Below are positions 1 to 43,439 of a stretch of 64,000 nucleotides of DNA, in pieces. A program made the position numbers and the translations under genes. The first letter of the stretch is position 1, and every line of letters begins with the position of its first letter. Origin of the DNA: Turnera subulata. Taxonomy: Eukaryota; Streptophyta; Magnoliopsida; Malpighiales; Passifloraceae. The stretch is from the NCBI GenBank assembly GCA_028386065.3, contig JAKUCV010006610.1:150704-214703 (forward strand). The letters run 5' to 3'. The notes under the pieces were generated by a model, which saw nothing but the letters and a program-made list of their open reading frames with translations, was not told where the DNA came from and ran no database searches.

Positions 1-1154
1 CATGCGATGATTGGAATTGTATACCTGCTTGTTCTCACATGCCTAATTTCTATATGAAAAATTGTTATGAAAAACTACTTTGGTGATAATGTATGATTAT
101 GGGCCGCAGGCCCGGATTAAACAGGGACACATACCATTCACACTTCCCTGAAAGACATAATGTACTTCAACAGAAATGTAAAGTGTAATTAAGAATAAAA
201 TGCTAAATTCTACTGTGGCGTCGGTTGGTAGCCCCGAGGGAGGGTGGGTACCCTCGGGTCACATTATGCTGTTTAGCATGCCCAGGGGATGTAGGTGCAC
301 CCCTGGAAGACTTGCACCGGTTAGGTGTGTCTGAGTGCACCCTCAGGTAGCTAGCGGCCACCCGAGATTTATCAGTGGTTTTTGGCCTCAGAATCTACCC
401 CTTCTGAGGTTCGACATTTGGGTTTCACACCCTGATCTGATCAGATGCGCTACCGAGACTTGACTCACAGTAGAGGGCCCATAATGATAAAGATAATAAT
501 TATAATAATTAAAATATCACATCAAATCTAAACACTAAGAACAATAATACATTAAGATGATTATGTGTTGGTGTGTGATTCTGATTTGCTTGTATGCTGT
601 ACTTGTGCTCGTGAGCTACTCACCCTACGAGCATGACTTCACTTTCATGTATACTTAAACTTTTAATGTTCACTGAGTAGGCGACTCACATAATCGCCAC
701 CGTTGTTTTTTCAGACTTTAGTTAGCGTGCAGACTCACTTATACCTTCGACTCGGAGATCAGACGCAGTCACTTCAGCAGGTAGTTGTGCATCATCTCTC
801 GGTGGGATCCATAGGGCCATATGCATGACGTTTTCTATCTTGAGTATTATTATTATTTTCATCTTCCGCTGCATGTGAAATAACTCGAGATGTCATAAAT
901 ATTTTATCTCTATATCGGCAGTTGGCCGGAGTTGATTTTGTGATATTATGTCGGCGTGATGCCGTGATGGCTTACTACTTGTTAAGCCGGTTGATCTCAT
1001 TTACTTTTATGACATCTCGCTGTTAATACATTTTCATGGAAAATGTTTGTATGCCGAAGCATCGGTTTTTGTACCCCGGGTTTCAAGAGTATTTTGGTAA
1101 CTCTTTTTCATTTAATCATTTTATTTTTATTTAATTGGGGTACGGGTTTCCACA
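1..1154 (+). repeat. Partial 5' LTR
   Basis: It matches 5753-6908 of the 3' LTR and ends in the same tttccaca. From about position 280 to 1154 there are only about seven mismatches. The first about 280 bases are clearly more diverged, with many substitutions and small indels. The 5' part of this LTR lies before the window. Confidence 0.9.
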
Positions 1155-1170
1155 GTTGGTAGCGGAGCGG
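1155..1170 (+). other. Primer-binding-like site
   Basis: Directly after the LTR end the sequence reads gttggtagcggagc. This resembles the common plant tggtatcagagc primer site for initiator Met tRNA but differs at several bases. The Copia element at 43047 has the same tggtagcggagc after its 5' LTR, so it may be a true variant site; the tRNA is not identified. Confidence 0.6.
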
Positions 1171-1551
1171 GCTTCAGATCTTTGGGATTTCAAAGTGATT
1201 TTTCCCTGAGCATAAGTCTATTTCAGATTTATAATTTTCTAAAAAAAAAACATTTTTTCGACTTGTTTGCATTCATATAGGCATTATTATGGATCCACCG
1301 CAAGACATGTACAATGCTGAAGGATATGGTGAATTTTAATAAGAGATGAAGTTGACAATGTTTGCTACGGGGAGCATTCGTAAAAGGGGAAAATTTTTGC
1401 CATAAATAAGAGGAAATGCAGATATTATTAATACTGGTAATACTGATATTACAAGGGGAAATGTTGCATTGACTTTGATATTTCATATTTTATAAAAAAG
1501 GAAATATTACAACGATTCTGATATTTTATTAAAATAGCAAAAAAAAAACAT

Positions 1552-2235
1552 TTAACGATTTGGGACGACGTTGACACGGAAGCTTGTGGGATCGTTGTTG
1601 ATGTTGACCGTGAATCTGTCGCTCCACGAGAGCCACATGCCGCCTCTGTCGCGCTGGCCAGGAATCTCGAACCGGTTAGCTTGAGGGAATCGGAGTGGGA
1701 TGAGACCGTGATCGTCCCGGGGTTGCCACTGCGTCTCCGTCAGAAGAACCATATTCGGTTTGTACTGGTTCTTCAAGTCCCTCAGCGTACGTGTGAACTC
1801 TTGAGCACGCCTTGCAACTCCCCTGCAATTCCACACCAGCAGCCGTACCTTTGGCCAAGTTGGAGGTAGGCGCGTCATTCTGGGTATGCTTTGGGCCGTC
1901 ATCGCAAGCTGGTAGTATGCACCTTGCTCCACAGTCTGGCAAGTGGACTCCAGGTTGAACTCCTGAAGCCTGTCGGAGATGAAGAACATCACAGAGTTTG
2001 CCGATCCGTAGTAGGATGTCCTCAGAGTGCCGCGATCCTCCAGGTAGATCACCTCTTCCATTGGAGTGACAAAGAACCGCGATGAGTAGAGCTCGTCGAC
2101 GAATACCAGTCGGGGCATCCTGCCGAGCTCATTTGGTAGTTCTTCGGCACGTTCATTGACCATACTATAGGCCAGTCGGTTCCTTCTGCCAAGGTTGGCA
2201 CCTTCAACAAAGAAAACTGATGATGGGGCAGGCAT
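1552..2235 (-). CDS. Antisense retroelement-borne gene, 227 aa, with C-terminal LINE-endonuclease-like fragment
   Basis: This is an intact 227-residue frame that starts with ATG at 2235 and lies antisense to the LTR element carrying it. Residues 1 to about 130 match no family I know; they include VFFVEGANLGRRNRLAYSMV and LVFVDELYSSRFFVTPMEE. Residues from about 130 (VRLLVWNCRG, then VLLTET, then GGMWLSW) look like the first strands of the exonuclease-endonuclease-phosphatase domain that opens LINE ORF2. The later catalytic motifs (GDFN, SDH) are absent, so nuclease activity is unlikely. A full version of that domain is visible in the LINE at 61189. A copy of exactly equal length lies at 19507-20190, 72% identical, with the same C-terminus (FRVNVVPNR). 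Function is unknown. Antisense extra frames are known in some plant LTR elements, but I cannot tell whether this family is described. Confidence 0.75.
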   Translation of the reverse strand: MPAPSSVFFVEGANLGRRNRLAYSMVNERAEELPNELGRMPRLVFVDELYSSRFFVTPMEEVIYLEDRGTLRTSYYGSANSVMFFISDRLQEFNLESTCQTVEQGAYYQLAMTAQSIPRMTRLPPTWPKVRLLVWNCRGVARRAQEFTRTLRDLKNQYKPNMVLLTETQWQPRDDHGLIPLRFPQANRFEIPGQRDRGGMWLSWSDRFTVNINNDPTSFRVNVVPNR

Positions 2236-2343
2236 TGTGTTTGGGCGAGTAGGTGTGTCGTTTTTCCTGAGTTTGAGGTTTCTTTGTCTGGGCGTGAGGT
2301 TGCTTTAAAACGCTTTGGATAACTTAGTCCTCATTCTACCGTC

Positions 2344-2350
2344 TTTTATA
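2344..2350 (-). promoter_or_regulatory. TATA-like box for the 227-aa antisense gene
   Basis: The minus strand reads ggTATAAAAgacgg about 110 bases upstream of the ATG at 2235. That fits a core promoter with a leader of about 80 bases. No transcript evidence is available. Confidence 0.45.
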
Positions 2351-3072
2351 ACCTTAGGAGGAGCGTGTTTATTACGTTCGAATTTCAAGTGTCTGCGTTT
2401 TGAAATTTTACCGTTGCCTCATTTATTGCATCGACACGCTATGTGTTTGTTGTTCGGGCAATAAATGCCAGAGGTTATCAGTCCTTTTCTACCTTAAAAT
2501 TTTCAATTTCCCGGGCTACTTCAATTTGGTTTCTTTAAGACTTGTTCCTACATCTTTGTCACATGCACTCGTGATCGTTGTGGCTAGACCGTGTGGACCA
2601 CACCTCGAGTAGAGTGCGTATGCGACAAGCTTACAGCTGTTCGGACAGCGCGGAGAGGTGTGAGACGAGACAGACGTTTTTGGCTCATACAGACAATTGT
2701 GGACAAGTGGGTAACGTGTCTTTCGAGGGACACAGGACGCTCCGTGATCATCGCCTTGCCAGTTAACGGGTATCTTTTTCACGAGGCTATCAGACATCAC
2801 CGTTAACTGTGTACGTCACGTTTTCGGGATCGAGGATGTTCACGATCGATCCAGGGCGCCGAATATGGAAACTTGCTTTGTTAAAATCTTTTAATGTTTT
2901 GACTTTATTAAACGGGTCTTGCTTCATTTATCATTTTCTTATGGTTGATTGCGTACCTTTATTGCTGGTTTTAATCTGTTTAACACGAGATTTCGCAATA
3001 ATAAAGTTTCGATTTAAGAAGAAAGCTCATTTTATTGATTTCATAAACATCTTACAACAAAGGAAAAGCACT

Positions 3073-3471
3073 CTACGGAGTTACATGATGTTTCAGATCG
3101 GTTACAAGTTTCTGTATATTCGCGACCTGAGAAGAGAGTCCCATATAGGCCAGTTCAATTTGCATCACTGCAGTGTGGACCTTCTTCAGTGAAGTGTCCA
3201 GTTGCTTCATTATCTGCAGAGGTGTGCTGGACTCAGCTGTTGCCTTGCCTTTCCTATCTTTTGCATCTTTGTTACCAGAAGGTCCTTCCTTGCTTACACG
3301 CTTCTTTCGCCGTCTTGGGGGAATCACCATATGCTCCTTTAGACCGATGATCTTGGTCTTGAACCGCTTCTTAGGAGGTTCCTCATCGGAGCTTGTCGGG
3401 AAAGCCCTACCACCGATGTAACTGTTATCCTCTGAGTCAGAGGTAGTACGGGATCTTAGTCGTGAGTCCAT
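3073..3471 (-). CDS. Second antisense gene, 132 aa, basic and acidic, coiled-coil-like C-terminus
   Basis: This intact 132-residue frame starts with ATG at 3471 and lies antisense to the LTR element. The first 35 residues are rich in Ser, Asp and Glu. Residues about 33-75 are strongly basic (PPKKRFKTK, PPRRRKKR), like a nuclear-localisation or nucleic-acid-binding stretch. The last 50 residues have spaced hydrophobic positions (IMKQLDTSLKKVHTAVMQIE) that could form a coiled coil. I recognise no family, and no second copy occurs in the window. A TATA-like box sits 34 bases upstream. Chance is possible for a frame of this size, but the biased composition, in-frame ATG and promoter spacing favour a real gene. 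Confidence 0.5.
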   Translation of the reverse strand: MDSRLRSRTTSDSEDNSYIGGRAFPTSSDEEPPKKRFKTKIIGLKEHMVIPPRRRKKRVSKEGPSGNKDAKDRKGKATAESSTPLQIMKQLDTSLKKVHTAVMQIELAYMGLSSQVANIQKLVTDLKHHVTP

Positions 3472-3504
3472 AGTTGTGAGTGAGTTCTCAACTCAGAGGT
3501 ACGG

Positions 3505-3512
3505 TTTTTATA
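3505..3512 (-). promoter_or_regulatory. TATA-like box for the 132-aa antisense gene
   Basis: The minus strand reads tcTATAAAAAccg with its end 34 bases upstream of the ATG at 3471. Transcription would start only a few bases before the ATG, giving a very short leader. Confidence 0.45.
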
Positions 3513-3646
3513 GACAGGAGAAACACCGCTTAAGGGTATAAGCGACATCTCGCAATGAGTTCGGACACCTGGTGGAGAATACCAGAAACTTATCGTGGTA
3601 GGACCTATGGACTTGATGATTGAATTTCGAGGACGAAATTCTTTTT

Positions 3647-3660
3647 AAGGTGGGTAGAAC
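3647..3660 (+). other. Polypurine-tract-like sequence before the 3' LTR
   Basis: The purine-rich aaggtgggtagaa lies immediately before the TG of the 3' LTR, where plus-strand DNA synthesis of an LTR element is primed. Confidence 0.65.
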
Positions 3661-6600
3661 TGTAACGCCCCGGATCTCTCATAAGTTGATTTTCGGCATT
3701 TTTGGAAAGTTATTCCGATTTTACCCTTGAGGTATTTTCGAGTTTTAGTCGAGGAAATAGATTATCTTTCCTTGGAAATGTCAATTTCCAGTTAGAATTC
3801 CTCATGCTTCGGGTTTCGTTGTTATCGGAATGTGTTTCGGGGTGAAACGGGGGTTTCGTTGTGTCTTCGATCGAAACTACGTCGTTTTGATGATTTAAAA
3901 AAAAAAAAAAAATTGACCAGGCGGGGGTTGACCGCGCCTAAGCGGACGACGAGTCGTCCACTAGGGCGGCCAACCCTAGCCGATCCCTTCTTCTTCTTTT
4001 CTCCACCTTTCCTTTCTTTTTACTTCTTTTCTTCTCCAACCTTCACTTTTCTTTTCTTCCCGTTACCATTCCACCCAGCCGCCGCCGCCCCAACGTTCTT
4101 GTCTTCCACTATCTCCCCTCCTTTTTCTTCTCCTCCCCATTCGGCCTGCAACCCTCACGATTTCTCTTCCTCTCTTCTCTTTTTACTCCTTCCCGTCCTC
4201 TCTGCCCCTCTCACAAAAAAAACTGCCGCCGCCACCTTGCATCCTCTCTTCTACTTCCGTGTCGCCGTCGCTGAGACACGAAGCCGCCGCCGCCACCACG
4301 AGTCGCAGAGGAGGCCGAGACGAGGGCCGATTTCATGCGCGACGGCGAGTGCTGCGTGTGGACATGAGTCGCCACCGCCGTTCCTCGAGTTGTTGGGTAA
4401 GTACCGCCGTCCCTCTATCCTCTTGTGTTCTTCCTTCGTTTGGATGTTGTGTGTGTGTACTAATCCGATTTGGGTTGTCTCCTTGGTGGTGGTCATTGGC
4501 TGTTGTTGGTGTGTGTGGTAATGCCGGTGTGTCTGTCTTATGGCGGCGCGTTGTCTGTGTTGGGGGTTGATCTTCCGGGCAGTGAGTTACGTTTCTGGAC
4601 GGGCTTGAGATTGATACTGTTCTTTGGTTTCGGGCAGAATCAAATTTAGGGACAAGGAGGATTCGTGTTTTTTTTCGAGTAAGGATTCTTTTCTCCAATC
4701 CTTTTTCTTGAATCGATTTGGGGTCAGGGGGTGTTGTTTTGATTAATTGTATGTTGTGGGGTTGAATATGGTTTCAATGTTGTTTGATTCTTGGCAGAAT
4801 TGTTGTGGTTGTTGTCTTGGTTATTGTGGAGTTTTTCCGGCGAGTTGATCGGAATCCGGCGAGGCTCGAAACTTTTCCGGCGAGTTGATCGGAATCCGGC
4901 GAGGCTCGAAACTTTTCCGGCGAGGGCTCGGGTTCTGCCCAACAGTCTATATTTCTCGTTTTTACGAGTGTTAGACGGTAATTGTCTATGATTATTCTCG
5001 GTTATGTTATGTACTTAATTTTGGAATTTATTTTACGAAATACATTTATTTATATTTGTACATTTAGTGAATTACGATTTACCGAGAGCGGAGAGTTGGG
5101 GTGTGTGGCCGGGAGAACCTACCGACACGAATAGACTTTAGGCCGATTAATCTTGGGCTCGGAAACGACTTTAGGACGGTTTTAGGAAAAACCGAGCCCA
5201 AGCCCAATAACCCCGATTTGAAGCTTAAGATATTTAATTGGACTTAAAGAACGAACTTAGGACTTAATCACGGAAATTAAACTCACGGATGTTAAGAACG
5301 GGCTCGAAGCCCAATTTCATAATCGGTAAAATATGGACTTAAAAGAGGTGGGGCCCATGGCCCGGAATTTGTGATTTAAGACTTAGTGGGCTTTAGGCCC
5401 GAGAATTGTTAATTTACTTAAACCGATGAACCGTAGATCCTTAATTGTTGGAGTTATGGATGTGAAAATAACCTTTTGGGCTTAGGCCCGGAAATCTTAC
5501 AATTTGTTAGTTAGGGACGGAAGATACTCGATTAGAGAATACCATTGGCATACATATACGTTTTATTTCCAAAATTGGTTTGGTGATTATATTATGTGCC
5601 GGTATTCAGGCACGGGAGATATCTCGGAAGCTGTAGACTCGGATCGGGGAGAAGTCATAACCTACATTTTGAGGTGACATTACAAGTCTTTTTATATATG
5701 TTTTGTGAATGCATGTTGGTGTGGTTTGTTTGTTTACTTGCCTTGTTTGCTACATGCGATAATTGGAATTGTATGCTTGATTGACTTACATGTCTAAATT
5801 CTACATGAGAAACTGTTATATACTACGTAATACACTCTTGGTGATAATATGTGGTTATGGGCCGAAGGCCCGGATGATACAGGGACACATACACACTTCC
5901 CTGAAAGACATAATGTACTTCAAATGGAAATATAAAGGTTTAATTAAGAATAAAATACTAAATTCTACTGTGGTGTCGGTTGGTAGCCCCGAGGAGGGTT
6001 GGGTACCTCGGGTCACATTATGCTGTTTAGCATGCCCAGGGGATGTAGGTGCACCCCTGGAAGACTTGCACCGGTTAGGTGTGTCTGAGTGCACCCTCAG
6101 GTAGCTAGCGGCCACTCGAGATTTATCAGTGGTTTTTGGCCTCAGAATCTACCCCTTCTGAGGTTCGACATTTGGGTTTCACACCCTGATCTGATCAGAT
6201 GTGCTACCGAGACTTGACTCACAGTAGAGGGCCCATAATGATAAAGATAATAATTATAATAATTAAAATATCACATCAAATCTAAACACTAAGAACAATA
6301 ATACATTAAGATGATTATGTGTTGGTGTGTGATTCTGATTTGCTTGTATGCTGTACTTGTGCTCGTGAGCTACTCACCCTACGAGCATGACTTCACTTTC
6401 ATGTATACTTAGACTTTTAATGTTCACTGAGTAGGCGACTCACATAATCGCCACCGTTGTTTTTTCAGACTTTAGTTAGCGTGCAGACTCACTTATACCT
6501 TCGACTCGGAGATCAGACGCAGTCACTTCAGCAGGTAGTTGTGCATCATCTCTCGGTGGGATCCATAGGGCCATATGCATGATGTTTTCTATCTTGAGTA

Positions 6601-6908
6601 TTATTATTATTTTCATCTTCCGCTGCATGTGAAATAACTCGAGATGTCATAAATATTTTATCTCTATATCGGCAGTTGGCCGGAGTTGATTTTGTGATAT
6701 TATGTCGGCGTGATGCCGTGATGGCTTACTACTTGTTAAGCCGGTTGATCTCATTTACTTTTATGACATCTCGCTGTTAATACATTTTCATGGAAAATAT
6801 TTGTATGCTGAAGCATCGGTTTTTGTACCCCGGGTTTCAAGAGTATTTTGGTAACTCTTTTTCATTTAATCATTTTATTTTTATTTAATTGGGGTACGGG
6901 TTTCCACA
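3661..6908 (+). repeat. 3' LTR, 3248 bp
   Basis: It begins tgtaacgccccgg and ends tttccaca. The first part holds a pyrimidine-rich stretch (about 3980-4210) and GC-rich codon-like sequence to about 4400 whose frames are probably fortuitous. It contains a 40-bp tandem repeat at 4833 and repeated ggcccatggcccgg-type motifs at 5150-5500. No host gene is visible in it. Confidence 0.85.
4833..4922 (+). repeat. 40-bp tandem repeat inside the LTR, about 2.3 copies
   Basis: Units at 4833-4872 and 4873-4912 are identical. A third partial unit starts at 4913 (ttttccggcgag). Confidence 0.9.
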
Positions 6909-8660
6909 TATTTTGCTTACGGTTAATTAAAATATGTTTTTAATTAAATTTTCCGAGTGGGCTATTAAGAAGGCCCATTGTGCTTATTTCCAATTTTATA
7001 TAATTTATGTTCTACTTGGGCTAATATTAATAAAAGGCCCAGATACATATATTTTATTATCACGAGCGACTAAAGGGCTGGAATATCGGCTCAAATGCTC
7101 GGTTTCAATTTTAATTTTAAATTAAGTATGATTAGTATATCGGTTGGAAACATATAACGAGCTAATCTTCAATTAATTGGAAAGGCTGATCTTATATTTT
7201 TTAGGAAATTATGGAGATAATAAAAATAAATAGGGCATTAGACAAGCCGTATAATAATAAAACCGGCATCATGCATGATCATCCTTGTTTGTGCATTGTA
7301 AGTGATTTTTGTTGTTATAAATATAGGGATATCGAGGCTTAATCAGATATCACTTCCCTGGAGTATCAGGTGAGGATATAAACTTATAAACTTCGGTATG
7401 CTGCCCGTGATACCCCGGTTGTTTGTTTGATTGTTATTTATATGTTATCATGTCGTGCCTGTCATGTTATTACTGGCTATTGTTGTGATTATCGTTATAT
7501 GCTTGATTACTACTGTGGACTAGCTGTTGAGCTTTGTGATGTTGATGTGAATATTGTGATGTCCATACGAGATACGAGATATTTGAGTTAATAGTGACAG
7601 TGACCCGATATTGTGACATTGTGATTGAATTCCCAGAGGAGCTGTGAGGCTGAAAGCCTGCTCGGGAAAGTGAGAATGATGGGTTACTGTTGGACAGTGG
7701 AGTTAGAAATAATAATAAATAGTGGAATAACAACTAGACATCTAGGTTGTCACGTGACAGGTATTGGTACGGCCAGATGGTAGTCGCCTTGTGATTTGTG
7801 ATTTGATAGGGAGGACTGCGGGACTCCCGGCTGAGGACTGTGGGACTCAGTTGATTTGTTATAGGAAGGACTGCGGGACTTCCGCCGAGGACTTCGGGAC
7901 TCGGTTATTGTGATACTTTGTGATTTGAGATATTTATGGATTAACGGGGAGTACCCTGGGTTTAGCTAACCTGGCTACCAGGCACGACCAATACTTATTA
8001 CGTGACAGGGCCCTAATAATAAAATTGGTAAGTCTATCGGCAATAGTCAGTGAGTTTATAATACTAGCTTAACCGTGAGAGGTCTGATGTATAGCGAGTT
8101 CGGGTAAGTTGTTGATACCGATGCTATGATTGTGCTTGCTGTACTTCTATTATTTCTGTGTTGGCTTGGGTGTATTTGCGATTGCTTGTATACTGCGGTT
8201 TATCTGTTTATCGGTGAGACAGTGGTTGGTCTCACCCCTCACACAGTCCTTGCAGGTTAGGTTAGGTTTGCATACCGGCGGCTGTGACGTTACCTCGGAC
8301 AGGACTCGGATCCAATACTTGCATTAAGTCTTGCATAAGGTGATAATCTAATGCTTCAGCTGTGCTGATGTTGATATCCTCGTGTCGAGAGACAGGATTG
8401 TGACTTTGACTATTTATTAATTTTATTATTATGTGTTCATACTTTTATGATATGATGGCCACGTGGTGGCACTGTTTCGCTGTAGTTTCTGTTTGTTGGG
8501 TAAATACGGGTCGGGTCGTTTCAGGATCTCTCATATTCTGGTGTTGATTCGGTTCATTTATGTGTCCCTCCATGTAGAAGTCTCTCCTCGTCCATACTCC
8601 ACAGGCACTAGCGTACAGTTCTCGCCCTTATCGACCCCGGGTGTCACAACCTAAATTAGT
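6909..8660. repeat. LTR-like remnant flanking the first element
   Basis: There is no coding sequence. The stretch has LTR-like traits: paired gactgcgggactcccg / gacttcgggactcgg motifs at 7806-7905, a gggct...ggccca hairpin motif near 6958, and a gaccccgggtgtcacaa end near 8632-8649. It may be an old LTR into which the first element inserted. Its borders are uncertain. Confidence 0.4.
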
Positions 8661-9087
8661 GATTTACGTGGGAATTCCAGCATGGATCTCACGGGCTAAC
8701 CAATTAAGTACTAGGTAACAACCAATATTTATCACATAACAAGGCCCGAAAAGGACATGAATTGAGGGGGGGCCAAATAATAGACGCTAAAAGGATCAGT
8801 ACGACCTGAACATGTGGATATCGAATAGGTGTGTGTGAAATGAAGAATTATATTATGGACCCTGATTAAGGTTTATTTTTTATTTTTAGTTAATCTGTGG
8901 AGGGTTTTCATTTTTTTGTTTTAAAATTTATTTATTTTCTTAATTTATCCTATATTATTGAGTAAATATATGTAAATAATATACCTAATAATAATGAAAG
9001 TTTTTTTTTGAACAGTAATAATAATGAAAGTTAAGACAAAATTTACAAGTGATATACCTTAGTGAGGGCCCACAATAAAATTTCTCG
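8661..9087. other. AT-rich intergenic stretch with one short insertion scar
   Basis: I see no gene. A 15-bp direct repeat (8986-9000 and 9016-9030) brackets a 15-base T-rich insert. Confidence 0.7.
8986..9030 (-). repeat. Short oligo-A insertion with perfect 15-bp target-site duplication
   Basis: The sequence taataataatgaaag occurs at 8986-9000 and again at 9016-9030. Between them lies tttttttttgaacag, which on the minus strand reads ctgttc followed by nine A. The LINE tail at 42711 also reads gttc then oligo-A. This looks like an extremely 5'-truncated retroposition. Confidence 0.65.
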
Positions 9088-9147
9088 GTGGGAAATACTT
9101 TCCATCTCGGCCTCCGGAAAGAAACAGAGAGAGTGTTTTTCCATTTG

Positions 9148-9166
9148 TATATATATTATATATTAT
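9148..9166 (+). promoter_or_regulatory. TATA region of the At2g23090-like gene
   Basis: A TATATATATTATATATT run lies about 150 bases upstream of the ATG at 9306. A telo-box-like ttagggttt, common in plant housekeeping leaders, occurs near 9218. Confidence 0.5.
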
Positions 9167-9305
9167 CTGCCCCCAATCATAATAATAGCGTGTTTAGGCT
9201 GCTGCTCCTCCAGAAATTAGGGTTTCCCGGAAGGGCTCTCCCCAAATTCGCGTGGCTTTTTTTTTTTGTCGATCAACCAACCCCCACCCCCAACACCCTC
9301 ACACA

Positions 9306-10188
9306 ATGGGAGGAGGCAACGCCCAGAAGTCCAAGATGGCTCGCGAGCGCAACTTGGAGAAGGCAAAAGCTGCCAACAAAGGTTCCCCCCCCCTTCTTTT
9401 TCTTCGTTTTGTTTGTTCGTTCGTTCGTTTGTTTTCTCATTCTGTTGTTGCTTTTTTTGTTGGGCTTATTTGTCAGGGAGTTGGAGAAACACAATCCGTT
9501 CGATTTTTTCATTCTATTAACCAATTTTGCTCTTTTACCCTTTGCAGGAAGCCAGCTTGATGCAAACAAGAAAGCCATGACTATCCAGGTCTTTTCTATG
9601 CCTCTTGTCTTCCCTTCCTGAAATTTTTCTGCGTTAATCGCTCTTTGAATTATGCTTAACCGTGTATTTCTTCAATTTGCAAATTCAGATGTTTTGGGTT
9701 TTTTCAATTCCTGTTATTTTTCAGTATTTTTTCTTCTTTTGATAGAATTTGATCGAGGGAAGTTTGAAACTTCCTTATGTTTGTGTTCATTCCTTTCAAC
9801 AAATCACCTAATAATGTAGCGATTATGGCATCATTATCTCTCAATTATAAGCTGATTAATGATGTTTTTTCCCCGGATATATCAAACTCTTCATTGTTTT
9901 TTTCTTCCCCTATAAATAATATTCGTTTTGCAGACAATTGGCATTGTTTTGTAGTAGAAAATTTTGTGTCCACTGTGGTTGTTGTTGAATTCATCAGTTA
10001 TGCTTTGTATGTGATTGACATGTTGGTTGAATATCTGAAATGTGAATGCTGGTTGATTTTGGATGCAGTGCAAGGTTTGCATGCAGACTTTCATTTGCAC
10101 GACTTCGGAGGTGAAGTGCAGGGAACATGCTGAGGCGAAGCACCCTAAATCTGATCTCTTCACCTGCTTCCCCCACCTCAAAAAGTGA
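9306..10188 (+). CDS. Small zinc-binding protein, At2g23090-like (DUF1909 / 4F5-like family)
   Basis: Three exons are read as 9306-9381, 9548-9588 and 10069-10188, all with GT-AG introns, giving 78 residues. The product starts MGGGNAQKSKMARERNLEKA, a basic helix typical of this family. It continues with Q-CKVC, MQTFICTT, and a REHAEAKHP...CFPHLKK tail. The Cys pair (CKVC) and His pair (H-x4-H) fit a C2H2-like zinc site. Known relatives are about 75-80 residues, so the length is complete. Family function is poorly defined; the N-terminus resembles small EDRK-rich factors. The start is the only ATG giving the conserved MGGG. The gene looks intact. A possible poly(A) signal (aataaa) lies near 10480. 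Confidence 0.9.
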
Positions 10189-11756
10189 TCCCAATCCGAG
10201 TAAATGTCTTGTAGAAACTGTGAATCAATGTTTACCTCGTATATTTAGCAGTTACATCTGTTCTGCTTGCACGTGAGTTTCAGAGACTGCTTCACCTAAT
10301 GTCTCCTTGTTATAATGAAACCATGCATCTTCTAAGTATCTCTTTATGGAATGGATGGATGTTTTGTTTAATTCTTTGGTGATGGTGTGCATCAAGTTTT
10401 ATCCAGTGAACTTAAAAATTAACGAGTACATAAACTTGTTGAATCTTGTCTTGCACTCTGTTACTGTAATTGACTGACAATAAATTGCCATTCCGGCTCT
10501 AGGTCCTCTAGCTCTAGCATCATGTGGCATCGATAAAAGCACTGGCATAATGCCATTCTGTTACGGTGCGCCAAGATGCGAGGCAGTCCATTGTGGTTGT
10601 TTTTATATATACTGATTTGACATTGGTCAGTGTGGCATTACTCATTAGGTTAATATACTCGAGTCAATCTTGCCAATCTCGAATTTCTGGGTATTTTATT
10701 TCTCCTGCACGAGGAAAGAGAGCCATCTCAATTTTAGAGTACCCACATAGCCACAGATGGAAAATAGAGGACTGCCCTCAAATTCTAAGCGTGATTAAAT
10801 TTTTAAATCCCGCTATAAAATTCTCCTGTTTTGAAAAGACTTTTGGAACCAAAAGAATTGGAACCGCAAGTTCAAGGCAGAGTACGGAACAAGTCATGAG
10901 TAACACGAGACTAAGACAAGATAAAAAGCCTGCAAATGACAATACGCAAGTAGTTTGATGGATGTAAATTCCTCACTTTAAAGTGTCCTTTTACCAGGAT
11001 GATCCACTTCAACGACGGTAATTGGATTCCAGTTTCGTATCAGAAGCTGCGTTAGTTTCTCTCTCGAACTCTGTGGAACTATCTCTATCTGGCAAATGCT
11101 ACGATTTGTTGTTTGTTCTAGCTCTACTTGGTTGTGGCAATTTGTATATTTTATTTGCAATGTGCATGTTTGGTGTCCCGATCGCGACAATTACATTTAC
11201 GATAGTTTGGCATTTGCTCAAGTTATACCATCTGAATGAGTTGTTTCTTTTCTAAACTGGACAAAAAGGAGAGCCAAAAATCCAGCTTGTCTTCCACCTA
11301 TACCAAGTTTGAATCTATAAATCATCAACATAAAAAGTGGGGATTAATCAACTCGAGCACGTTTTCTTTGGAATAAATTTTAGTCAAGAAGTCTAAGAAT
11401 CAATCTTTAAATCAAAGTATTCGGCTAAGTAGCAACATATAGGGTGCCTCACAGTATATAAGTATATATTGTCCTGCAAAAAGGATCTCCGCCTGCAGCA
11501 CCAATTAACAGAGCTCCTTCAACAGAGCAGCCAGAATAAAATTGACCAGAAAATCAAATCATAGCAACGCAATAGGATATATTCAATACGACAATGCATA
11601 ACTTGAAAAACATTCAATAAATATCCATACACAAAGTGCCCATAAAATAGATGGCAGCACAATGTTCTTTAAGGTAGACAAGCAGAAGCACAATAAGCGT
11701 CTCATATGGTAACTGCTCCTCATATGCTGAAATACGCCATGGAACATAGTAGCCTG
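10189..11756. other. Intergenic region between two convergent genes
   Basis: It holds the 3' UTR of the small zinc-protein gene (to about 10500) and, on the minus strand, that of the CK2 gene (from 11756 downward). A 130-codon frame at 10566-10958 has no recognisable features and is not called. Confidence 0.6.
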
Positions 11757-15994
<4,238 letters not shown>

Positions 15995-16884
15995 GTGCCA
16001 CTAATTGAAAATTTTTACCCCACCCCCCACAAAAAAAAAAAAAAAATAGAGTAAATAAATATAGACTTCTTAATTATTTCTCCGGATTCTTAAAAAGGAA
16101 AAATAAATGGAAAAAGAAGGAAAAATTTTTTAAAAAAAAGGAAAAGAAAAGGCAGAGTGACACGATCTAGGAGGGAAAAAGCTTGCCTGCCGCTGGTGGT
16201 TTCTCTCGTGCGGTGATTCTTTGCTTTTGGGGGTGCATTCTTTGCTCTACTGTCTTTGTTTTTTTTCTTTTGCCAGCTCTTCCTTTGATTTGGTTTGTTA
16301 GAATTAGAAATATCTTTGTTCGAGGTGATTGGATTGGACGATACCCATTGGACGTATTTTAAAAATTTTATGTCAAATATGTGTGACGTTTGATGGTACC
16401 ATATATATTTATTTTTGACTTTACTGAAATCAACTAGACTATGGAACTTGTTTATTTGAAATATGAGTTTTTAGTAGGGTGATGAATAATTTTAGATTAA
16501 GAAAAAAAAACTTCCTTCACATATGAAATTTTTTCCCAAAATTCAAATAATTCAAGAAAATAAGTAACATATTCCATTATTATCATTTCAGTTAATACTC
16601 TGGGATCATTTAATATTTTTTTTGAGGAATTAATATTTTTTTAATTAATTAAACATATATCTATATATCTATACTGTATATAAAAATACAAACTCTTAAA
16701 TAAGATCTTAAGGACGGATTCAGGAGCAAACAGGAGCCACGCCTCTCTAAAATCCAATTATTTATATTTATAGTGGTAGTTCTAGTGTTTTACTAGACCT
16801 AAAATGTAAAACGAGTGGAAGGATGTTAGTGTGGTTTCTGTTCTTTATTATTATTCGTCAAAAGAAAAGTATGGTTTCTATTCT
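15995..16884. other. CK2 upstream region and AT-rich spacer
   Basis: No gene is seen. The CK2 promoter should lie in the first few hundred bases. A short repeat (16600-16680) recurs at 28345-28440. Two probable short insertion scars sit at 16610-16640 and 16832-16885. Confidence 0.6.
16610..16640 (-). repeat. Short T-rich insertion between ttaatattttt direct repeats
   Basis: The 11-mer ttaatattttt occurs at 16610-16620 and 16630-16640 around tttgaggaa. A related locus at 28356-28400 shows the same structure, so the insertion predates duplication of this repeat. Confidence 0.45.
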
Positions 16885-16885
16885 T
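16832..16885 (+). repeat. A-rich insertion with 14-bp target-site duplication
   Basis: The sequences tggtttctgttctt (16832-16845) and tggtttctattctt (16872-16885) differ at one base. They bracket a 26-base insert ending in A-rich cgtcaaaagaaaagta. The Copia element at 16885 later inserted in the second copy. Confidence 0.5.
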
Positions 16886-17084
16886 GTTATAAAATAGTGA
16901 AAAATGTGAATGTAATTCTCTACCTACCTCTCATCTGTATTCCCTATATATTGTGTATATCCCAACATAGAAAAGATATGCAGATAACGAACTGCTCTTC
17001 CCAGCTCTTCTTCCTCTCCTTTTTGTCTTCTCCTTCTCTATTTTTCAGTCATTAATCTTCATCTTCAACAAATTATATACAACA
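16885..17084 (+). repeat. 5' LTR of the Copia element
   Basis: It begins tgttataaaatag and ends atatacaaca, with the same length as the 3' copy. The following cgttattagcacgataac resembles the leader sequence seen after 5' LTRs of some plant Copia elements. Confidence 0.9.
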
Positions 17085-17199
17085 CGTTATTAGCACGATA
17101 ACGCTCTACCCAAGAAAACAAAATCAAGCTGAAAAACCAGAGAAAATCAAAGAAAGAAGACAGAAAAAAATACCCAGTACCCGTCACCTTCTTTGCCTC

Positions 17200-17640
17200 T
17201 GGCACTGTTCATCCATAAGGGTTTCCGGTCGTTGCTCGCCTCACCGCCGCCACCAGCAGCCTCCCTGTGCCGTCGCCGACTGAACGACACCCCTTCCTCC
17301 CATTTTCGCTGCACGACGCGCCGGTAGGAGGCCAAGACCCGACGAGGATCCGTCGGATCCGCCCCGACCCGTCTCCTTCCTCTCCTCGTTTGCAGCACCT
17401 ACGGCTGCCGCCTCGCCGTCTATGCCGCGCGCCTGTGTCGAGCGCCTGCCGCGCTGCCTTCCACGCAACCCAGCTCATCGGTGCAGACCGTCGCTTGTGG
17501 AGACGACCCGACCGCACGAGCCGCCGCCGTCGCCCTCGATTTGCAGCCTTCTCAAAGCACAGCCGCGTCGCCTCATCCTCGTGCCGCCCGTGCTCGCTGC
17601 CTCGCCCGCTCGCGCACGGGTCGGGATGACCCGTTTTTGG
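17200..17640. other. GC-rich block in the Copia leader
   Basis: Base composition is much higher in GC than all surrounding sequence. Frames are open on both strands, but none shows a recognisable domain. It could be a captured host exon fragment or a leader; I call no gene. Confidence 0.5.
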
Positions 17641-17672
17641 AGTTGCTGGGCTGGACGTGGGATGAGCCTTGG

Positions 17673-17745
17673 CTTGGCCGCTTGGGCCTGAGACCTGCGC
17701 TTGGGCGCTTGGGCCTAAGACCTGGGTTTGGGCACTTGGACCTGG
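17673..17745 (+). repeat. 27-bp tandem repeat, about 2.7 copies
   Basis: Units at 17673-17699 and 17700-17726, plus a partial at 17727-17745, follow the pattern cttggcgcttgggcctaaga. Confidence 0.8.
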
Positions 17746-18160
17746 TCATCCCTTGGGTCTGGACTTGGCTAGCACTATTCACAGGCCCAGTCTTTTAAAT
17801 AAAAAAAAGGAATAATAAATAAATATATATATAATTCTGGAAATAGAATTGGAATAATATTTTGGTAATTATTTTTTTTGGAAAAGGGGTATCATTAAAG
17901 TATTAATATCAAAGTAATAATCGGGTATAATTATGGTATAATATTGACACCTAATAATAAAAAAAAATTGTGAATGATGACGATTATGGTGAATTAACCT
18001 GAGACATAACCGAGTCGGTTTAATTTACGGTAAAGCATATCATTCGCATATCAATTTATGTGCATCTTATCTGAACATGTTATATTATTTTCATGAAACC
18101 AAGGTAATCATTTCTAAATTTTTTCAATCCGCATTTGTTTATTTGTTTAGTACTCAATAT

Positions 18161-18270
18161 TGGCCGGCAAAGCCGCCTTGCTTCATTTATTGGCTGGCAA
18201 AGCCGCCTTATCTCTTTGTTGGCCGGCAAAGCCGCCTTGTTTCATTTGTTGGCCGGCTAAGCCGCCTTTA
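18161..18270 (+). repeat. About 30-bp tandem repeat with hairpin core, four copies
   Basis: Copies start at 18161, 18191, 18220 and 18250 with tggccggcaaagccgcctt. Each contains cggc-aaa-gccg, a short self-complementary core. The spacers between units are pyrimidine-rich. Confidence 0.85.
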
Positions 18271-18320
18271 TTGAGTAAGCATATATTATATAGTATCTAT
18301 TATTATTATACTTATTTTTA

Positions 18321-18462
18321 TGATTGGGCTATTAAAGGGCCCATTATATTTATTTTCTTGCTTTAATTTACGTTCTGATTGGGCTATTAAAAGGCCCACT
18401 GTATTTATATTCCTTGTTTTTAATTTTCTTTATATTTTGCTTGGGCTCATACAAGGCCCATC
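18321..18462 (+). repeat. Three spaced gggct/ggccca hairpin motifs
   Basis: The motif tgggctattaaagggccca or a close variant occurs at 18325, 18379 and 18441, spaced 54-62 bp. Each can pair with itself. A similar motif lies at 6958 in the LTR-like remnant. Confidence 0.6.
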
Positions 18463-19506
18463 AGTTTTAATTTTCAGTCATTTATATTGGGGTAATTAAC
18501 AAAAGGCCCCTGTTTATTTATTTTAATTAAGTCTTTTATTTCTGTTATTTGATTTTGGGCCCTCAAAATTTCGGGAAGAAATTTATCATGGGCATTAAAT
18601 AGTTTGGAACACTAAATGAAAGAGTCCAGAAGACTCAAAAATACACCAAAGACCGAACGTCTTACTGTCAAAAGGTCCTGTCGATCTTTATATGACTATC
18701 AGATGTGGGACATTGAATGACCACAAGAAGATGGTTATTCTCACGAAATTTAAATACATACATACGCATCTGAAGAAATGTGTGTCCCTGCAGGACAAAA
18801 TGTAATATCAATGAAACCATATCTGGTCGAAATAATGACCAGGAAATTATGATATTATTCTTGCTCACCCTGGAGGTGCAAGTTAATTGCTTTAATTTTA
18901 AATGTTTAATTTTTAGCCTTATTATTTCTGTTATATTTACATTATGTTTATTCGTATTACTTTATGTTTATTCTTATTACTGTTTATTTCTTGTTATATG
19001 CACATTAAATTCTCGTTTCCTCGAATAATGACCCCGACATTTGTCCTGTAGACAATGCGATGATATATTTTGTACTTAATACACGGAAATTACTTATATG
19101 AAAATTTATTAACCCACTCCAGAAGAGCATGGGTCTTAATGCAACAGCATTCAAGGGGAGAGGAACACTGTATGTGAATACTGTTGCATACCTATACTGT
19201 GAAGAACACAAGTGTAACTATGATCTAGAAGATCATATACTTACGCTCTGGAAGAGCATAAACTCATGACGAGTACAAAATATTCTTGTTTACAGTAATT
19301 AAAGAAATTGTTACGGATCCATTAAATCGACTCTGCTCTATTCCCTGAAGCGAATAAGACAATATTAATAATTTGTCCCTATGGCTGTTGATGAGATTAT
19401 AATGGCAAAGGGGGAAAACATGCATATTATTATTGCATATGGGATTCATTACAAGGAGAACATTCACATAGAGGAATTGTTCTCATACATAAGTTGAAAT
19501 AATTAT

Positions 19507-20190
19507 TTATCGATTGGGTACAACATTGACCCTAAAACTCTGGGCTTCGTTATTGATGTTGGCCCTAACACTATCGTTCCAGGAGAACCACATATCACCC
19601 ATGTTGTTTTCTCCAGGTAGCTCAAACCGATTTGCTGGAGGAAAACAGAGTGGTATTACTCCATGATTCTCTGCTGGTTGCCACAAGGTTTTAGTAATCA
19701 AAACCATATTGGGCTTGTACTGATTCTTCAGATCCCTTCAGGTACGCACAAAATCTTGGGATCGCCTGGCCACTCCCCTGCAATTCCATAATAACAGTCG
19801 TACCTTGGGCCATGTAGGCGGTAACCCAAAAACCCTCGGGATACTCCGAGCCATCATAGAAACCTGATAATAGCTGCTCTGATTCAGAATTTGACAAGTA
19901 GGCTCTAGCTGGAATTCCTGCATTCTATCAGATATGAAAAACATAATAGAGTTAGCCGAACCATAAAAAGAAGCCCTTAGATTGCTTTGGTCCTCTAGAA
20001 AGAAAGTCTCTTCCATAGGAGTCACAAAGAACCTAGATGAGTAAAGCTCGTCAACAAAAACTAAACGAGGAATTCTTGCAAGTTCACTCAGCAGTTCCTC
20101 CTGTTGCTCATTCACCATGCTATAGGCTAGTCTATTCCTCCTTCCTAGATTGGCACCCTCAACAAAGAAAACGGTATAGAGGGAAGGCAT
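19507..20190 (-). pseudogene. Second copy of the 227-aa antisense gene, one in-frame stop
   Basis: The frame runs from ATG at 20190 to a stop at 19507 with the same length as the gene at 1552-2235. A single TGA at 19738-19740 interrupts it, replacing the Leu of LRDLKNQYKPN. There is no net frameshift. I count 164 of 227 identical residues with the first copy. The blocks VFFVEGANLGRRNRLAYSMV and LVFVDELYSSRFFVTPMEE are identical in protein while their DNA differs only at synonymous sites. The endonuclease-like C-terminal third is less conserved, and the TET glutamate is Lys here, which argues against nuclease activity. It lies antisense in a Copia element, unlike the first copy. Confidence 0.8.
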
Positions 20191-20245
20191 GTTTTATCTT
20201 GTTAATATTTTTCTGTATGTTTCCATCACATATCTCCCTCCCCCT

Positions 20246-20252
20246 TCTTATA
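20246..20252 (-). promoter_or_regulatory. TATA-like box for the second antisense gene copy
   Basis: The minus strand reads ggcTATAAGAagg, 56 bases upstream of the ATG at 20190. The position is similar in kind to the TATAAAA box of the first copy, though closer. Confidence 0.35.
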
Positions 20253-20439
20253 GCCTGAGCTTAGATAGCTAGGTGACAGTTTTCAAATGTGGACCCTTTC
20301 ACTTATCTCCGAAAAGATCCTGAAGATTTTTCAGTTTTCACAAAACTCCAAAGTTATTTTTGGAAAAGTTTGCACAATAATTTCGATCTTTTCGACATGA
20401 GTGGCAGATATAAGCCTAATATTGGCACATATATTGCAG

Positions 20440-20680
20440 CCTGAAGCTAGCAATTTAAGTTATTAAACTTACTATATCCAGCCAGAAGCTGAAATGCTCT
20501 AGCCTGAAGCTAGCAATTTTAAGTGTTTAAATACACAAGTTTATACAGCCTGAAGCTGAGACCGACTAGAAGTTAACTGATAGATATTTAATTTATAGCT
20601 AGTATGCATCAGCCATAAGCTGATAAATAATTTTTCTAAGTTATTCAGCCTGTAGCTGGCACCGACTTGAAGTTGGTACA
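20440..20680 (+). repeat. Dispersed cagcctgaagctg repeats in the Copia interior
   Basis: At least six imperfect copies of cagcctgaagctg occur in 240 bases, several followed by gcaatttaagt or accgac. They are spaced irregularly, 40-70 bp apart. No coding role is visible. Confidence 0.6.
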
Positions 20681-21289
20681 TGGACATATTGTTTGGCATG
20701 ACCGGTTGGGCTATCCCGGGTAAATAATGATGCACAAAATTTATTTGGTCATTCATTGAAAAGCCAGAAGTTTTTATAATCAATGAATTTCCATGTGTTT
20801 GTTTGCTGCGAAATTAATAATATGGCCTTCCTAAGATGAGATTGGCCTAGACCAGCAAGTTTGAGAATGATTCAGGGACATGAACGCGGACTGATAAATC
20901 CGTTGTGTTAACCATCTAGGTAATTTTTTACGATGCATCGACTAGATGGTCTATTGTGTAATGCGAGTTGGCATTGTGCGTACTAATTTAATAATTAAGC
21001 CACTTGCAGGCATATGTCCCTACTTATGTTACTAGACTATATGTGTAGATAATGTTGGTATATTTCTTCAATAGAGAACTATATATCATTAGAAATAAAC
21101 CCAAACAGATTTAGGGGAACATTGACAATTGATTGCAGGACCATTGATGAAATATTATTACTTGAGAAATTGGTATTTTATATGCAGCAACACTTGAGTG
21201 CATCAAGCCAACATGATAAGAACACCCCACTTAATTGATTAATGGTCACATACTTAGTATTTCCCATCTTCGGACCATCGGTTATTCAG

Positions 21290-22990: not shown

Positions 22991-23242
22991 CACTGCCTAG
23001 TTAAAGTAGTGATGTATCAAAAGTGATCGGACAAAGCACACGTCACCTGAAGTTGCCAAGGATGGTTTGCATACAACAACATCATGATATCAAGAGAGGC
23101 TAAAATGAGGGGGAGTAGAATACGTACTGCACTCTTTTTCCCTTCACCAAGTTTTTATCCCACTGAGTTTTTCTTGGTAAGATTTTTAACGAGGCAGTAA
23201 TACAAAAGCGTATTCTACAGTACAATGACATTCAAGGGGGAG

Positions 23243-23442
23243 TGTTATAAAATAGTGAAAAATATGAATGTCATTCTCTATCTACCTCTCATCTGTATTC
23301 CCTATATATTGTGTATATTCCAACATAGAAAAGATATGCAGATAACGAGTTGCTCTTCTCAGCTCTTCTTCCTCTCCTTTTTGTCTTCTCCTTCTCTATT
23401 TTTCAGTCATTAATCTTCATCTTCAACAAATTATATACAACA
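23243..23442 (+). repeat. 3' LTR of the Copia element
   Basis: It has the same 200-bp extent as 16885-17084, starts tgttataaaatag and ends acaaca. It is preceded by the purine tract ttcaagggggag. Confidence 0.9.
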
Positions 23443-43046: not shown

Positions 43047-43332
43047 TGTTAAGAAAAATGACATTGTTGGTTCCTGTTGACTTGTTCATATTTAGTTACT
43101 AGTAGTTCCAATAATCATGCATTGTCACAACCAAATCTGTTTAGGTTTCATAGTTGTTACATTGCAGATTTTTAGCTATTTTTCTCTTTTAAGTTGTAAC
43201 TAGCTACACCTACATAGGTAAGTGGTTATCTTTTTTTTCTATATAAGTTCATGGTCCAGTGATGAATAAGATATACCAAAATAGGAGTTTTCCTATCTCT
43301 TTTTAACCTTTGTTTCTCTGTAAGTTCCAACA
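43047..43332 (+). repeat. 5' LTR of the gag-protease Copia
   Basis: It begins tgttaagaaaaatg and ends gttccaaca. A TATA-like tctatataagttc lies near 43239. Confidence 0.9.
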
Positions 43333-43439
43333 GTGGTAGCGGAGCCACAGTAGTTCTTACAGGACCAAAGTTTTTTAAAACCCAAAACACCACACCAGAA
43401 ACACATTTCCTTTAAACACTTTTCCAATCAACACAGTCA

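What the first reader, a model, noticed from the sequence alone, without database searches (positions are those of the whole stretch)
1552..20190. A selected 227-residue gene carried antisense by two unrelated LTR retroelements
The frames 1552-2235 and 19507-20190 (both minus) have the same length, the same start and end motifs, and 72% identical residues. In the 22-codon block from VFFVEGAN and the 20-codon block ending VTPMEE I count 11 base differences each, all synonymous, and no amino-acid change. That is the mark of purifying selection on the protein, after the copies separated. One carrier has large LTRs and no gag-pol; the other is a Copia element with shattered pol. Each copy has its own TATA-like box. 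The gene thus seems to outlive its carriers' own genes. It may act for the element (for example in regulation or nucleic-acid handling) or hitchhike; the role is unknown.
Basis: partly seen in the sequence, partly recalled or inferred. Interest (0 to 1): 0.88.

Follow-up and report, generated by a model that had tools for sequence, protein, structure and literature searches.

The report
Antisense gene shared by retroelement parasites
A small protein gene, written backwards inside two unrelated families of jumping elements in a plant genome, has been kept in shape by natural selection even in elements that have lost their own genes, so it probably helps the elements rather than the plant, though how is not yet known.

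Summary
Window 1552-2235(-) is an intact 227-codon frame. In the window's own assembly 150 places were scored for each type. Carrier 1 belongs to a gag-only, pol-less Gypsy family; carrier 2 to a non-autonomous Copia family with ruined gag/pol. Among 36 copies picked by neighbouring non-coding DNA, dN/dS is 0.12, falling from 0.25 (close pairs) to 0.10 (distant); it is 0.117 both in copies without gag and in copies with it. In the Copia type it falls from 0.38 to 0.08, and four whole elements show no indel in the frame but 3-14 per pair in the pol remnants. A TATA box upstream is kept in 29 of 30 and 22 of 23 copies. A second antisense frame (132 codons) also looks selected. Residues ~131-206 resemble, weakly, the first half of a LINE endonuclease. 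Best reading: an antisense accessory gene of LTR elements, probably a cis-preferring nuclear regulator. Selection is shown; expression and role are inferred.

The parts
1..1154 (+). Carrier 1: 3' part of left LTR (start lies outside the window)
   Evidence: 95.5% identical to 5753-6908; K2P 0.034
1155..1172 (+). Carrier 1: primer binding site region
   Evidence: directly after LTR end CA; holds TGG, complement of a tRNA CCA end (recalled)
1262..1336 (+). Carrier 1: stump of the gag frame (about 25 residues, about 16 from the ATG)
   Evidence: tblastn with the gag frame of L035, E 1.9e-8
1552..2235 (-). Antisense accessory gene (ORF B), 227 codons, intact
1618..1845 (-). Part of ORF B (residues 131-206) resembling the first half of a LINE-type endonuclease domain
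   Evidence: Pfam Exo_endo_phos E 0.011, below cut-off; BLASTP E 8e-9 for one comparison with the LINE ORF at 61189-62730; hhalign probability 77.5%; Foldseek best hits LINE-1 EN, best E 5.5e-3
1525..1530 (-). AATAAA, possible polyadenylation signal of ORF B
   Evidence: starts at +22 after the stop; exact in 26 of 30 loci, window copy included
2345..2350 (-). TATAAA upstream of ORF B (at -115)
   Evidence: exact in 29 of 30 loci, window copy included
3073..3471 (-). Second antisense frame (ORF A), 132 codons, basic clusters, no confident family
   Evidence: full length in 21 of 30 loci, 18 without a stop; dN/dS 0.209 over 210 pairs
3507..3512 (-). TATAAA upstream of ORF A (at -41)
   Evidence: its conservation was not measured
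3031..3036 (-). AATAAA after ORF A
   Evidence: its conservation was not measured
3661..6908 (+). Carrier 1: right LTR, 3248 bp, TG...CA
16885..17084 (+). Carrier 2 (Copia type): left LTR, 200 bp
17085..17097 (+). Carrier 2: primer binding site CGTTATTAGCACG, complement of the anticodon arm of tRNA-Ile (tRNA sequence recalled)
   Evidence: passage on Bianca elements in PMC6317226
19507..20190 (-). Second copy of ORF B, same length, one TGA at codon 151 (19738-19740)
20248..20252 (-). TATAA upstream of the second copy (at -62)
   Evidence: exact in 22 of 23 other Copia-type copies
20438..20657 (+). Cluster of AGCCTGAAGCT-like motifs upstream of the second copy
   Evidence: 5 motifs with at most 1 mismatch here, 7 in the whole window; clusters also in L041-L043
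20671..22560 (+). Ruined Copia integrase and reverse transcriptase remnant
   Evidence: weak RVT_2 match (E 0.026); weak gag_pre-integrs matches in L041 and L043; 39-52 stops per frame
23243..23442 (+). Carrier 2: right LTR, 200 bp, preceded by a polypurine tract
   Evidence: flanks ATTCT / GTTCT (target-site repeat with 1 mismatch)

Best explanation
Shown: it is a protein gene that belongs to the elements, written antisense to their genomic RNA, held by purifying selection through many rounds of transposition in two unrelated LTR families (a gag-only Gypsy family with gag-less derivatives, and a non-autonomous Copia family). Likely but not shown: it is transcribed from its own TATA promoter. 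Inferred (about 0.4 for this step alone): the protein works in the nucleus as a nucleic-acid-binding regulator that favours the element encoding it or its close kin, for example by activating or un-silencing transcription, because it is kept by elements that must take gag and pol from others, and because a factor useful to both Gypsy and Copia should act at a step common to both.
For: Coding constraint between the two copies. Within-family dN/dS 0.119 in copies chosen by non-coding DNA, falling from 0.251 to 0.104 with distance; Copia type 0.379 to 0.080, and 0.539 to 0.109 in residues 151-227, which were not used for choosing: the pattern expected if copies drift after insertion while source copies are selected. 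No indel in the frame in 6 of 6 pairs of Copia-type elements, against 3-14 per pair in the clearly homologous segments of 20191-23242. Many full-length places. Conserved TATA (both types) and AATAAA (Gypsy type). dN/dS 0.117 (45 pairs) in 10 gag-less copies and 0.117 (15 pairs) in 6 copies with gag, all chosen by non-coding DNA. Target-site repeats, primer sites and polypurine tracts show the Copia-type carriers to be whole LTR elements. Endonuclease-like half domain without the later part.
Against: No transcript, protein, methylation or transposition data. The window's own Copia copy is dead (TGA, E167K), and 11 of 24 Copia-type copies read are broken. If gag was lost several times, part of the constraint seen among gag-less copies may predate the loss; that was not tested. 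A trans-acting product, or selection on helper copies only, is not excluded. The endonuclease likeness is weak by Pfam (7 of 20 members, best E 0.0039), absent from the PDB sequence search, and the structure model is poor (mean pLDDT 38.8). ORF A's ratio does not fall with distance (0.230 to 0.205). The motif cluster was seen in the Copia type only and is untested. Only one genome was searched.
Confidence: 0.55

Rival explanations
1. Two independent captures of a host gene family. Selection acted on the host genes, and the elements carry dead passengers.
For: Purifying selection between two copies alone cannot tell this apart; captures by plant LTR elements are described (PMC7264820, PMC13317346; passages). 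A host parent gene was not separately sought.
Against: Copies within each family are themselves under selection. Both copies end at the same codon, in mid-domain. The gene is in hundreds of places, whereas transduced genes are in one or a few copies (statement in PMC7264820).
Confidence: 0.04
2. Accessory factor for replication or integration acting in trans (nuclear import, RNA or cDNA binding), helping whichever elements are present.
For: A review proposes such roles for antisense frames (PMC7264820, parts 1 and 2 of 3 read). ORF A has basic clusters like nuclear signals (my reading).
Against: If it worked freely in trans, gag-less and pol-less copies should lose it as they lost gag and pol; among copies chosen by non-coding DNA, 10 of 11 gag-less ones have most of the frame and 7 are intact.
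Confidence: 0.25
3. The antisense RNA, not the protein, matters (double-stranded RNA or interference); the frame is a by-product.
For: Antisense transcripts of plant LTR elements may act through double-stranded RNA (PMC7264820).
Against: Constraint is on codon positions 1 and 2, not 3, with no indels among four elements: the protein is selected.
Confidence: 0.03
4. The Copia copy is a nested piece of the Gypsy element or a later insertion.
For: At default settings homology stops at the frame ends, as for a moved cassette.
Against: Third positions near saturation against LTR divergence of 0.03-0.04; same place in four Copia-type elements; clean split of the two types.
Confidence: 0.02

Closest known systems
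Antisense additional ORFs of plant LTR retrotransposons (maize Grande gene23, rice RIRE2, Silene Retand ORF4, Phaseolus PvRetro13)
   Same: Antisense to the genomic RNA, inside the LTRs, in many copies of a family, conserved, own upstream promoter (stated for Grande in PMC7264820)
   Different: Here the same gene is in a Gypsy and a Copia family, in elements without a working pol; half endonuclease-like, no TRP28 or SMC match in Pfam; in the Copia type it lies upstream of the integrase remnant, not between pol and the 3' LTR
ORF3 genes shared between different retroelements of bdelloid rotifers (PMC5408684; abstract and passages)
   Same: One gene type found in unrelated retroelement lineages
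   Different: Those are third frames (GDSL, DEDDy and others) of animal elements beside gag and pol; here antisense, in a plant, in pol-less elements
VANC anti-silencing proteins of Arabidopsis VANDAL elements (PMC5735166; passages)
   Same: Working model only: element-encoded protein with same-orientation motif clusters in non-coding parts of its element
   Different: VANDALs are DNA transposons (recalled); no sequence link tested; binding and demethylation untested here
LINE-type endonuclease/exonuclease/phosphatase domain
   Same: Residues 131-204 align with the start of a LINE-like endonuclease in the same window; N136 kept in 20 of 20 and E167 in at least 90% of 20 aligned copies
   Different: Covers only positions 2-87 of the 225-position profile, so the later catalytic part is missing; about 128 residues of unknown origin in front
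TR-GAG and LARD elements
   Same: Non-autonomous LTR elements with gag only, or with neither gag nor pol (names from search listings and from recall)
   Different: As I recall these names, they imply no conserved antisense genes

Membership tests
Antisense additional ORF of plant LTR retrotransposons | Lies between the LTRs, antisense to gag-pol or genomic RNA | tested here: met
Antisense additional ORF of plant LTR retrotransposons | Present in most copies of the family and conserved like other element proteins | tested here: met
   Of 39 non-coding hits other than the window copy, 35 give most of the frame, 22 of them intact; of the other 4, one is all N, two end at contig ends, one lacks 135 bases of the frame in the stretch fetched. 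dN/dS 0.119, against 0.205 for gag in 3 loci. Only the best 40 of 3245 candidates were scored
[quoted passage not shown]
   Gypsy type: no pol found, frame between gag and 3' LTR; Copia type: upstream of the integrase remnant. The survey PMC6317226 also counts 5' reverse frames
Antisense additional ORF of plant LTR retrotransposons | Transcribed from its own promoter, nuclear protein (Grande gene23) | not testable with these tools
   TATA conserved in 29 of 30 and 22 of 23; no expression data
Extra ORF as counted in survey PMC6317226 | Length of at least 250 codons | tested here: not met
   227 codons; cut-off read
Exo_endo_phos (PF03372) endonuclease | Full domain, score above gathering cut-off | tested here: not met
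   16 bits against 24.5; profile positions 2-87 of 225
Bianca lineage of Copia (carrier 2) | PBS complementary to half tRNA-Ile | tested here: met
   CGTTATTAGCACG or CGTTATCAGCAC in 4 of 4 elements; tRNA sequence recalled; Bianca statement read
Bianca lineage of Copia (carrier 2) | Reverse transcriptase phylogeny | not testable with these tools
   RT too decayed
Gypsy element without pol (carrier 1) | Retrotrans_gag match, no pol in the internal region | tested here: met
   PF03732 at E 1.1e-13 to 2.2e-13 in 4 of 4 gag frames. In L035 gag ends about 300 bp from ORF B, and the rest up to the 3' LTR matches the window's ORF A region. Frames of 180 or more codons in the internal regions of L035 and L040 are gag, the antisense frames and, in L040, a 186-codon frame overlapping the end of gag
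VANC-like anti-silencing factor | Binds motif clusters in its own element and removes methylation | not tested
   motif cluster seen; no binding or methylation data
Transduced host gene | Present in one or few element copies, with a host parent | tested here: not met
   hundreds of places; a host parent was not separately sought

The most novel reading that the evidence does not exclude
A portable selfish accessory gene: a short antisense-coded protein, built from half a LINE endonuclease fold plus a new N-terminal domain, that passed between Gypsy and Copia elements long ago and now survives as almost the only protein gene of many carriers of both kinds, by acting on its own carrier (activating or un-silencing it) while gag and pol come from other elements.
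Probability: 0.3. Interest if true: 0.85.

Novelty: new variant of a known kind. Interest (0 to 1): 0.68.

Why it matters
What antisense genes of plant LTR elements do is stated as unknown in the papers read here. This family is an unusually clean test case: the gene is under selection in copies that have lost gag and in which no working pol was seen, so its benefit is separable from them, and it is shared by two superfamilies, so it should act at a common step. At 227 codons it would also fall below the 250-codon cut-off of the large survey read.

Tried and rejected
Led nowhere: search of 5.8 billion proteins with ORF B and ORF A (none), viral and prokaryote contigs (none), PDB by sequence (two hits, E 0.86 and 1.7; none), whole-frame Pfam scan of both internal regions (none). 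RNA folding of the ORF B leader gave no structure beyond shuffles. The AlphaFold model is too poor to read beyond the endonuclease-like half. iqtree2 codon runs printed no omega and are not used.

Rejected: chance frame, nested insertion, host capture, RNA-only role. A first pass over Copia-type copies used a wrong offset and dropped 14 of 24; it was redone by alignment and its numbers are not used. (dN/dS 0.052, 435 pairs of 30 loci, window copy among them) used copies chosen by protein similarity and is biased low, as are 0.053 and 0.057 for gag-less and gag-bearing loci; the samples were drawn by non-coding DNA to remove that bias. In one search the script counted 24 gag-less loci of 30; one (L009) is unclear because its leader hit is the end of the 3' LTR, leaving 23, of which 20 have no internal stop (L023 has TTG for ATG).

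Dropped rows: and the bins leave out L052, L054 and L057 (indels); with all 24 copies the ratios are 0.140 (whole) and 0.340 (residues 151-227); of 39 hits besides the window copy, L075 is all N, L094 and L097 end at contig ends, L078 lacks 135 bases; L098 (407 N) was kept; gag state read for 19 of 39; 11 gag-less, 6 with gag, 2 unclear (one of these shows the last 43 residues of gag). ORF A ratio from the 21 of 30 loci where it is full length, 3 of them with a stop. In one search the leader and 17801-18560 are barely alignable, so their indel counts (8-24) are not leaned on; the 260-bp gag remnant has 6-7 against the window copy and 1-2 among the other three.

Full report
What was checked. 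The two frames exist as described, with one correction: window 1552-2235(-) is open over 227 codons, while 19507-20190(-), of equal length, has a TGA at codon 151. They agree in 165 of 228 codons; positions 1, 2 and 3 agree in 181, 199 and 96 of 228; 92 codons differ silently and 63 by residue. A pairwise codon model gives omega 0.054 and rejects omega = 1 by 2dlnL 199.4; both parts show it (0.036 for residues 1-128, 0.063 for the rest). None of 500 shuffles of the 2.5-kb internal region gave a frame of 227 codons. Homology at default settings is the frame plus 10 bp; a sensitive setting reaches 147 bp into the 3' flank, but that flank alone is marginal (20 of 500 and 11 of 500 shuffles as good) and the 5' flank shows nothing.

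Age. The LTR pairs differ by K2P 0.034 (carrier 1) and 0.040 (carrier 2), while third positions of the two genes are near saturation (96 of 228 alike). The genes parted long before either element landed. In a simulation from the intact copy, 38% of runs have one or more stops at 0.02 changes per site, half the Copia LTR distance, so a single stop is what decay after insertion could bring.

Carrier 1. It has LTRs of 3248 bp and a 2.5-kb internal region with two antisense frames, ORF B and ORF A. The host assembly (518.7 Mb, 7125 contigs) was searched. For P0001 the first look had 8196 candidates; 150 were scored, all at 95-100% identity over 226-227 of 227 residues, the window copy among them; by my count 13 of 150 have an internal stop. 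In longer stretches (10 fetched), L035, L037 and L040 have a 446-codon open sense frame (437 codons from its first ATG in L035) and L032 one of 361, matching Retrotrans_gag at about 1e-13, with weak zinc-knuckle matches, between the primer site and ORF B. In L035 gag ends about 300 bp from ORF B and the rest matches the window element, which leaves no room for pol. So carrier 1 belongs to a gag-only Gypsy family. Of the 30 best loci, 23 (window copy included) join the leader to ORF B with only 21-38 residues of the gag frame left, 5 show 200 or more gag residues, L016 shows 97 and L009 is unclear. In the sample chosen by non-coding DNA, 11 of 19 examined are gag-less, 6 have gag and 2 are unclear. 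The window copy is of the gag-less kind.

Carrier 2. It has 200-bp LTRs, a primer site CGTTATTAGCACG, a polypurine tract and flanks ATTCT / GTTCT. Weak matches to RVT_2 (E 0.026) and, in sister elements L043 and L041, gag_pre-integrs (E 0.018 and 0.043) place it in Copia. A half tRNA-Ile primer site is reported for the Bianca lineage (PMC6317226, passage; tRNA sequence recalled). For this type 6891 candidates were found and 150 scored, 90-100% identical over residues 1-150, the part searched, window copy among them; by my count 28 have a stop there. L041, L042 and L043 are whole sister elements with the frame intact at the same place. L042 has a perfect 5-bp target-site repeat AGACA, L041 GATAT if its LTR ends two bases further on (read by eye), and L043 and the window element repeats with one mismatch.

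Selection within families. Copies were drawn in three ways. (a) By protein similarity (biased low): carrier-1 type, dN 0.0107, dS 0.205, ratio 0.052 over 435 pairs. (b) By residues 1-150 of the Copia type: ratio 0.096 over 210 pairs of 21 copies without indels, 0.132 for residues 151-227, which were not used for choosing; with all 24 copies 0.140 and 0.340, the latter raised by three copies with indels. (c) By neighbouring non-coding DNA (window 2300-3060; best 40 of 3245 candidates scored), unbiased for the protein: 36 copies including the window's, 630 pairs, ratio 0.119, falling from 0.251 at dS below 0.08 to 0.101-0.104 at dS of 0.20 or more; 23 of 36 intact. In this sample the ratio is 0.117 among 10 gag-less copies (45 pairs, 7 intact) and 0.117 among 6 with gag (15 pairs, 5 intact). 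In the Copia type the ratio falls from 0.379 to 0.080 with distance, and from 0.539 to 0.109 in residues 151-227. This decline is what a gene selected in active source copies and drifting in dead insertions should show. Gag in three loci gives 0.205 and ORF A 0.209, the latter without a decline (0.230 to 0.205).

Contrast with the rest of the element. Among four Copia-type elements the frame has no indel in 6 of 6 pairs; the clearly homologous segments of 20191-23242 (400-790 bp each) have 3-14 per pair, 18821-19506 has 6-20, and the 260-bp gag remnant 1-7. Pol-remnant stretches have 30-53 stops per frame. TATA boxes on the antisense strand are exact in 29 of 30 carrier-1 loci (-115; window copy included) and 22 of 23 Copia-type copies (-62; window copy not included); AATAAA at +22 is exact in 26 of 30 carrier-1 loci. 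In the Copia type the TATAA is among the best kept short windows of the 150 bp upstream (0.965 against a 95th percentile of 0.906 for 6-base windows); in carrier 1 it is well kept but not exceptional (0.967 against a 75th percentile of 0.956). The tree of 51 copies splits the two types cleanly (support 1.0).

The protein. Residues 134-214 match positions 2-87 of Exo_endo_phos, below its cut-off; 7 of 20 members match at E up to 0.1. BLASTP to a LINE-like ORF in the same window gives E 8e-9 over 75 columns (a single comparison), hhalign 77.5% probability. Foldseek with a poor model (mean pLDDT 38.8) ranks LINE-1 endonuclease first (E 5.5e-3), none at 0.001; the alignment given to the model included the start of that LINE ORF, so this is not independent. 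N136 is kept in 20 of 20 aligned copies and E167 in at least 90%. The later part of the domain is missing, so it is unlikely to cut by itself (inference). The first 128 residues resemble nothing found.

Mechanism. Steps shown: element-borne, selected, antisense, conserved promoter-like signals, kept in gag-less and pol-less carriers, shared by two superfamilies. Steps inferred: expression, nuclear site, binding of nucleic acid, benefit to its own carrier. Selection in gag-less copies argues for cis preference: a freely diffusing helper should be lost as gag was. Sharing by Gypsy and Copia argues for a step common to both, such as transcription or silencing. In the Copia type, AGCCTGAAGCT-like motifs in one orientation lie about 250-470 bp above the gene in 4 of 4 elements, which recalls the same-orientation target motifs of VANC proteins (PMC5735166, passages). 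This is a lead, not a test.

Literature. Antisense frames are known in Grande, RIRE2, Retand and PvRetro13, of unknown role (PMC7264820, parts 1 and 2 of 3 read; PMC11963269, passages). Gene sharing between retroelement classes is known in bdelloid rotifers (PMC5408684, passages). The plant survey used a 250-codon cut-off (PMC6317226, passages). My answered searches, judged by titles and starts of abstracts, listed no paper on an antisense gene shared by plant Gypsy and Copia elements or with an endonuclease-like half; the library lacks most subscription journals.

Limits. One genome only; only the best hits are scored; no expression data; no search for a helper with pol or for a host parent gene.

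Noticed in passing
window 3073-3471 (-): Second antisense frame (ORF A, 132 codons) in carrier 1, with TATA at -41, AATAAA at +37 and basic clusters; dN/dS 0.209 among 21 copies; 15 of 500 shuffles of 2236-3660 reach its length.
   Followed up: partly
window 20438-20657; L041 5428-5546; L042 5385-5603; L043 5063-5181: Cluster of AGCCTGAAGCT-like motifs, all in one orientation, upstream of the antisense gene in four Copia-type elements.
   Followed up: partly
window 16885-17800 and the matching parts of L041-L043: LTRs and leaders of the four Copia-type elements differ by 0.3-0.6 while the parts from 20191 to 23242 differ by 0.05-0.2: LTR or leader exchange or very fast turnover.
   Followed up: no
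window 61189-62730 (+): 513-codon LINE-like ORF with a full-length endonuclease domain match, used here as yardstick.
   Followed up: partly
window 33269-34997 and 50947-52656: Two stretches 84% identical, with zinc-knuckle matches in both and DUF4283 in one; look like LINE first-ORF relatives.
   Followed up: no
window 43047-45337: Stretch bounded by 288-bp repeats 97% alike (43047-43334 and 45050-45337) with Copia-type gag and Pol_BBD frames.
   Followed up: no
window 22218-22516: Exact 145-bp direct repeat, copies 154 bp apart, within the RT remnant of the Copia carrier.
   Followed up: no
window 28815-29639 (+): 274-codon frame with a weak Ribonuclease III match, overlapped by a 228-codon minus frame 28886-29572.
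   Followed up: no
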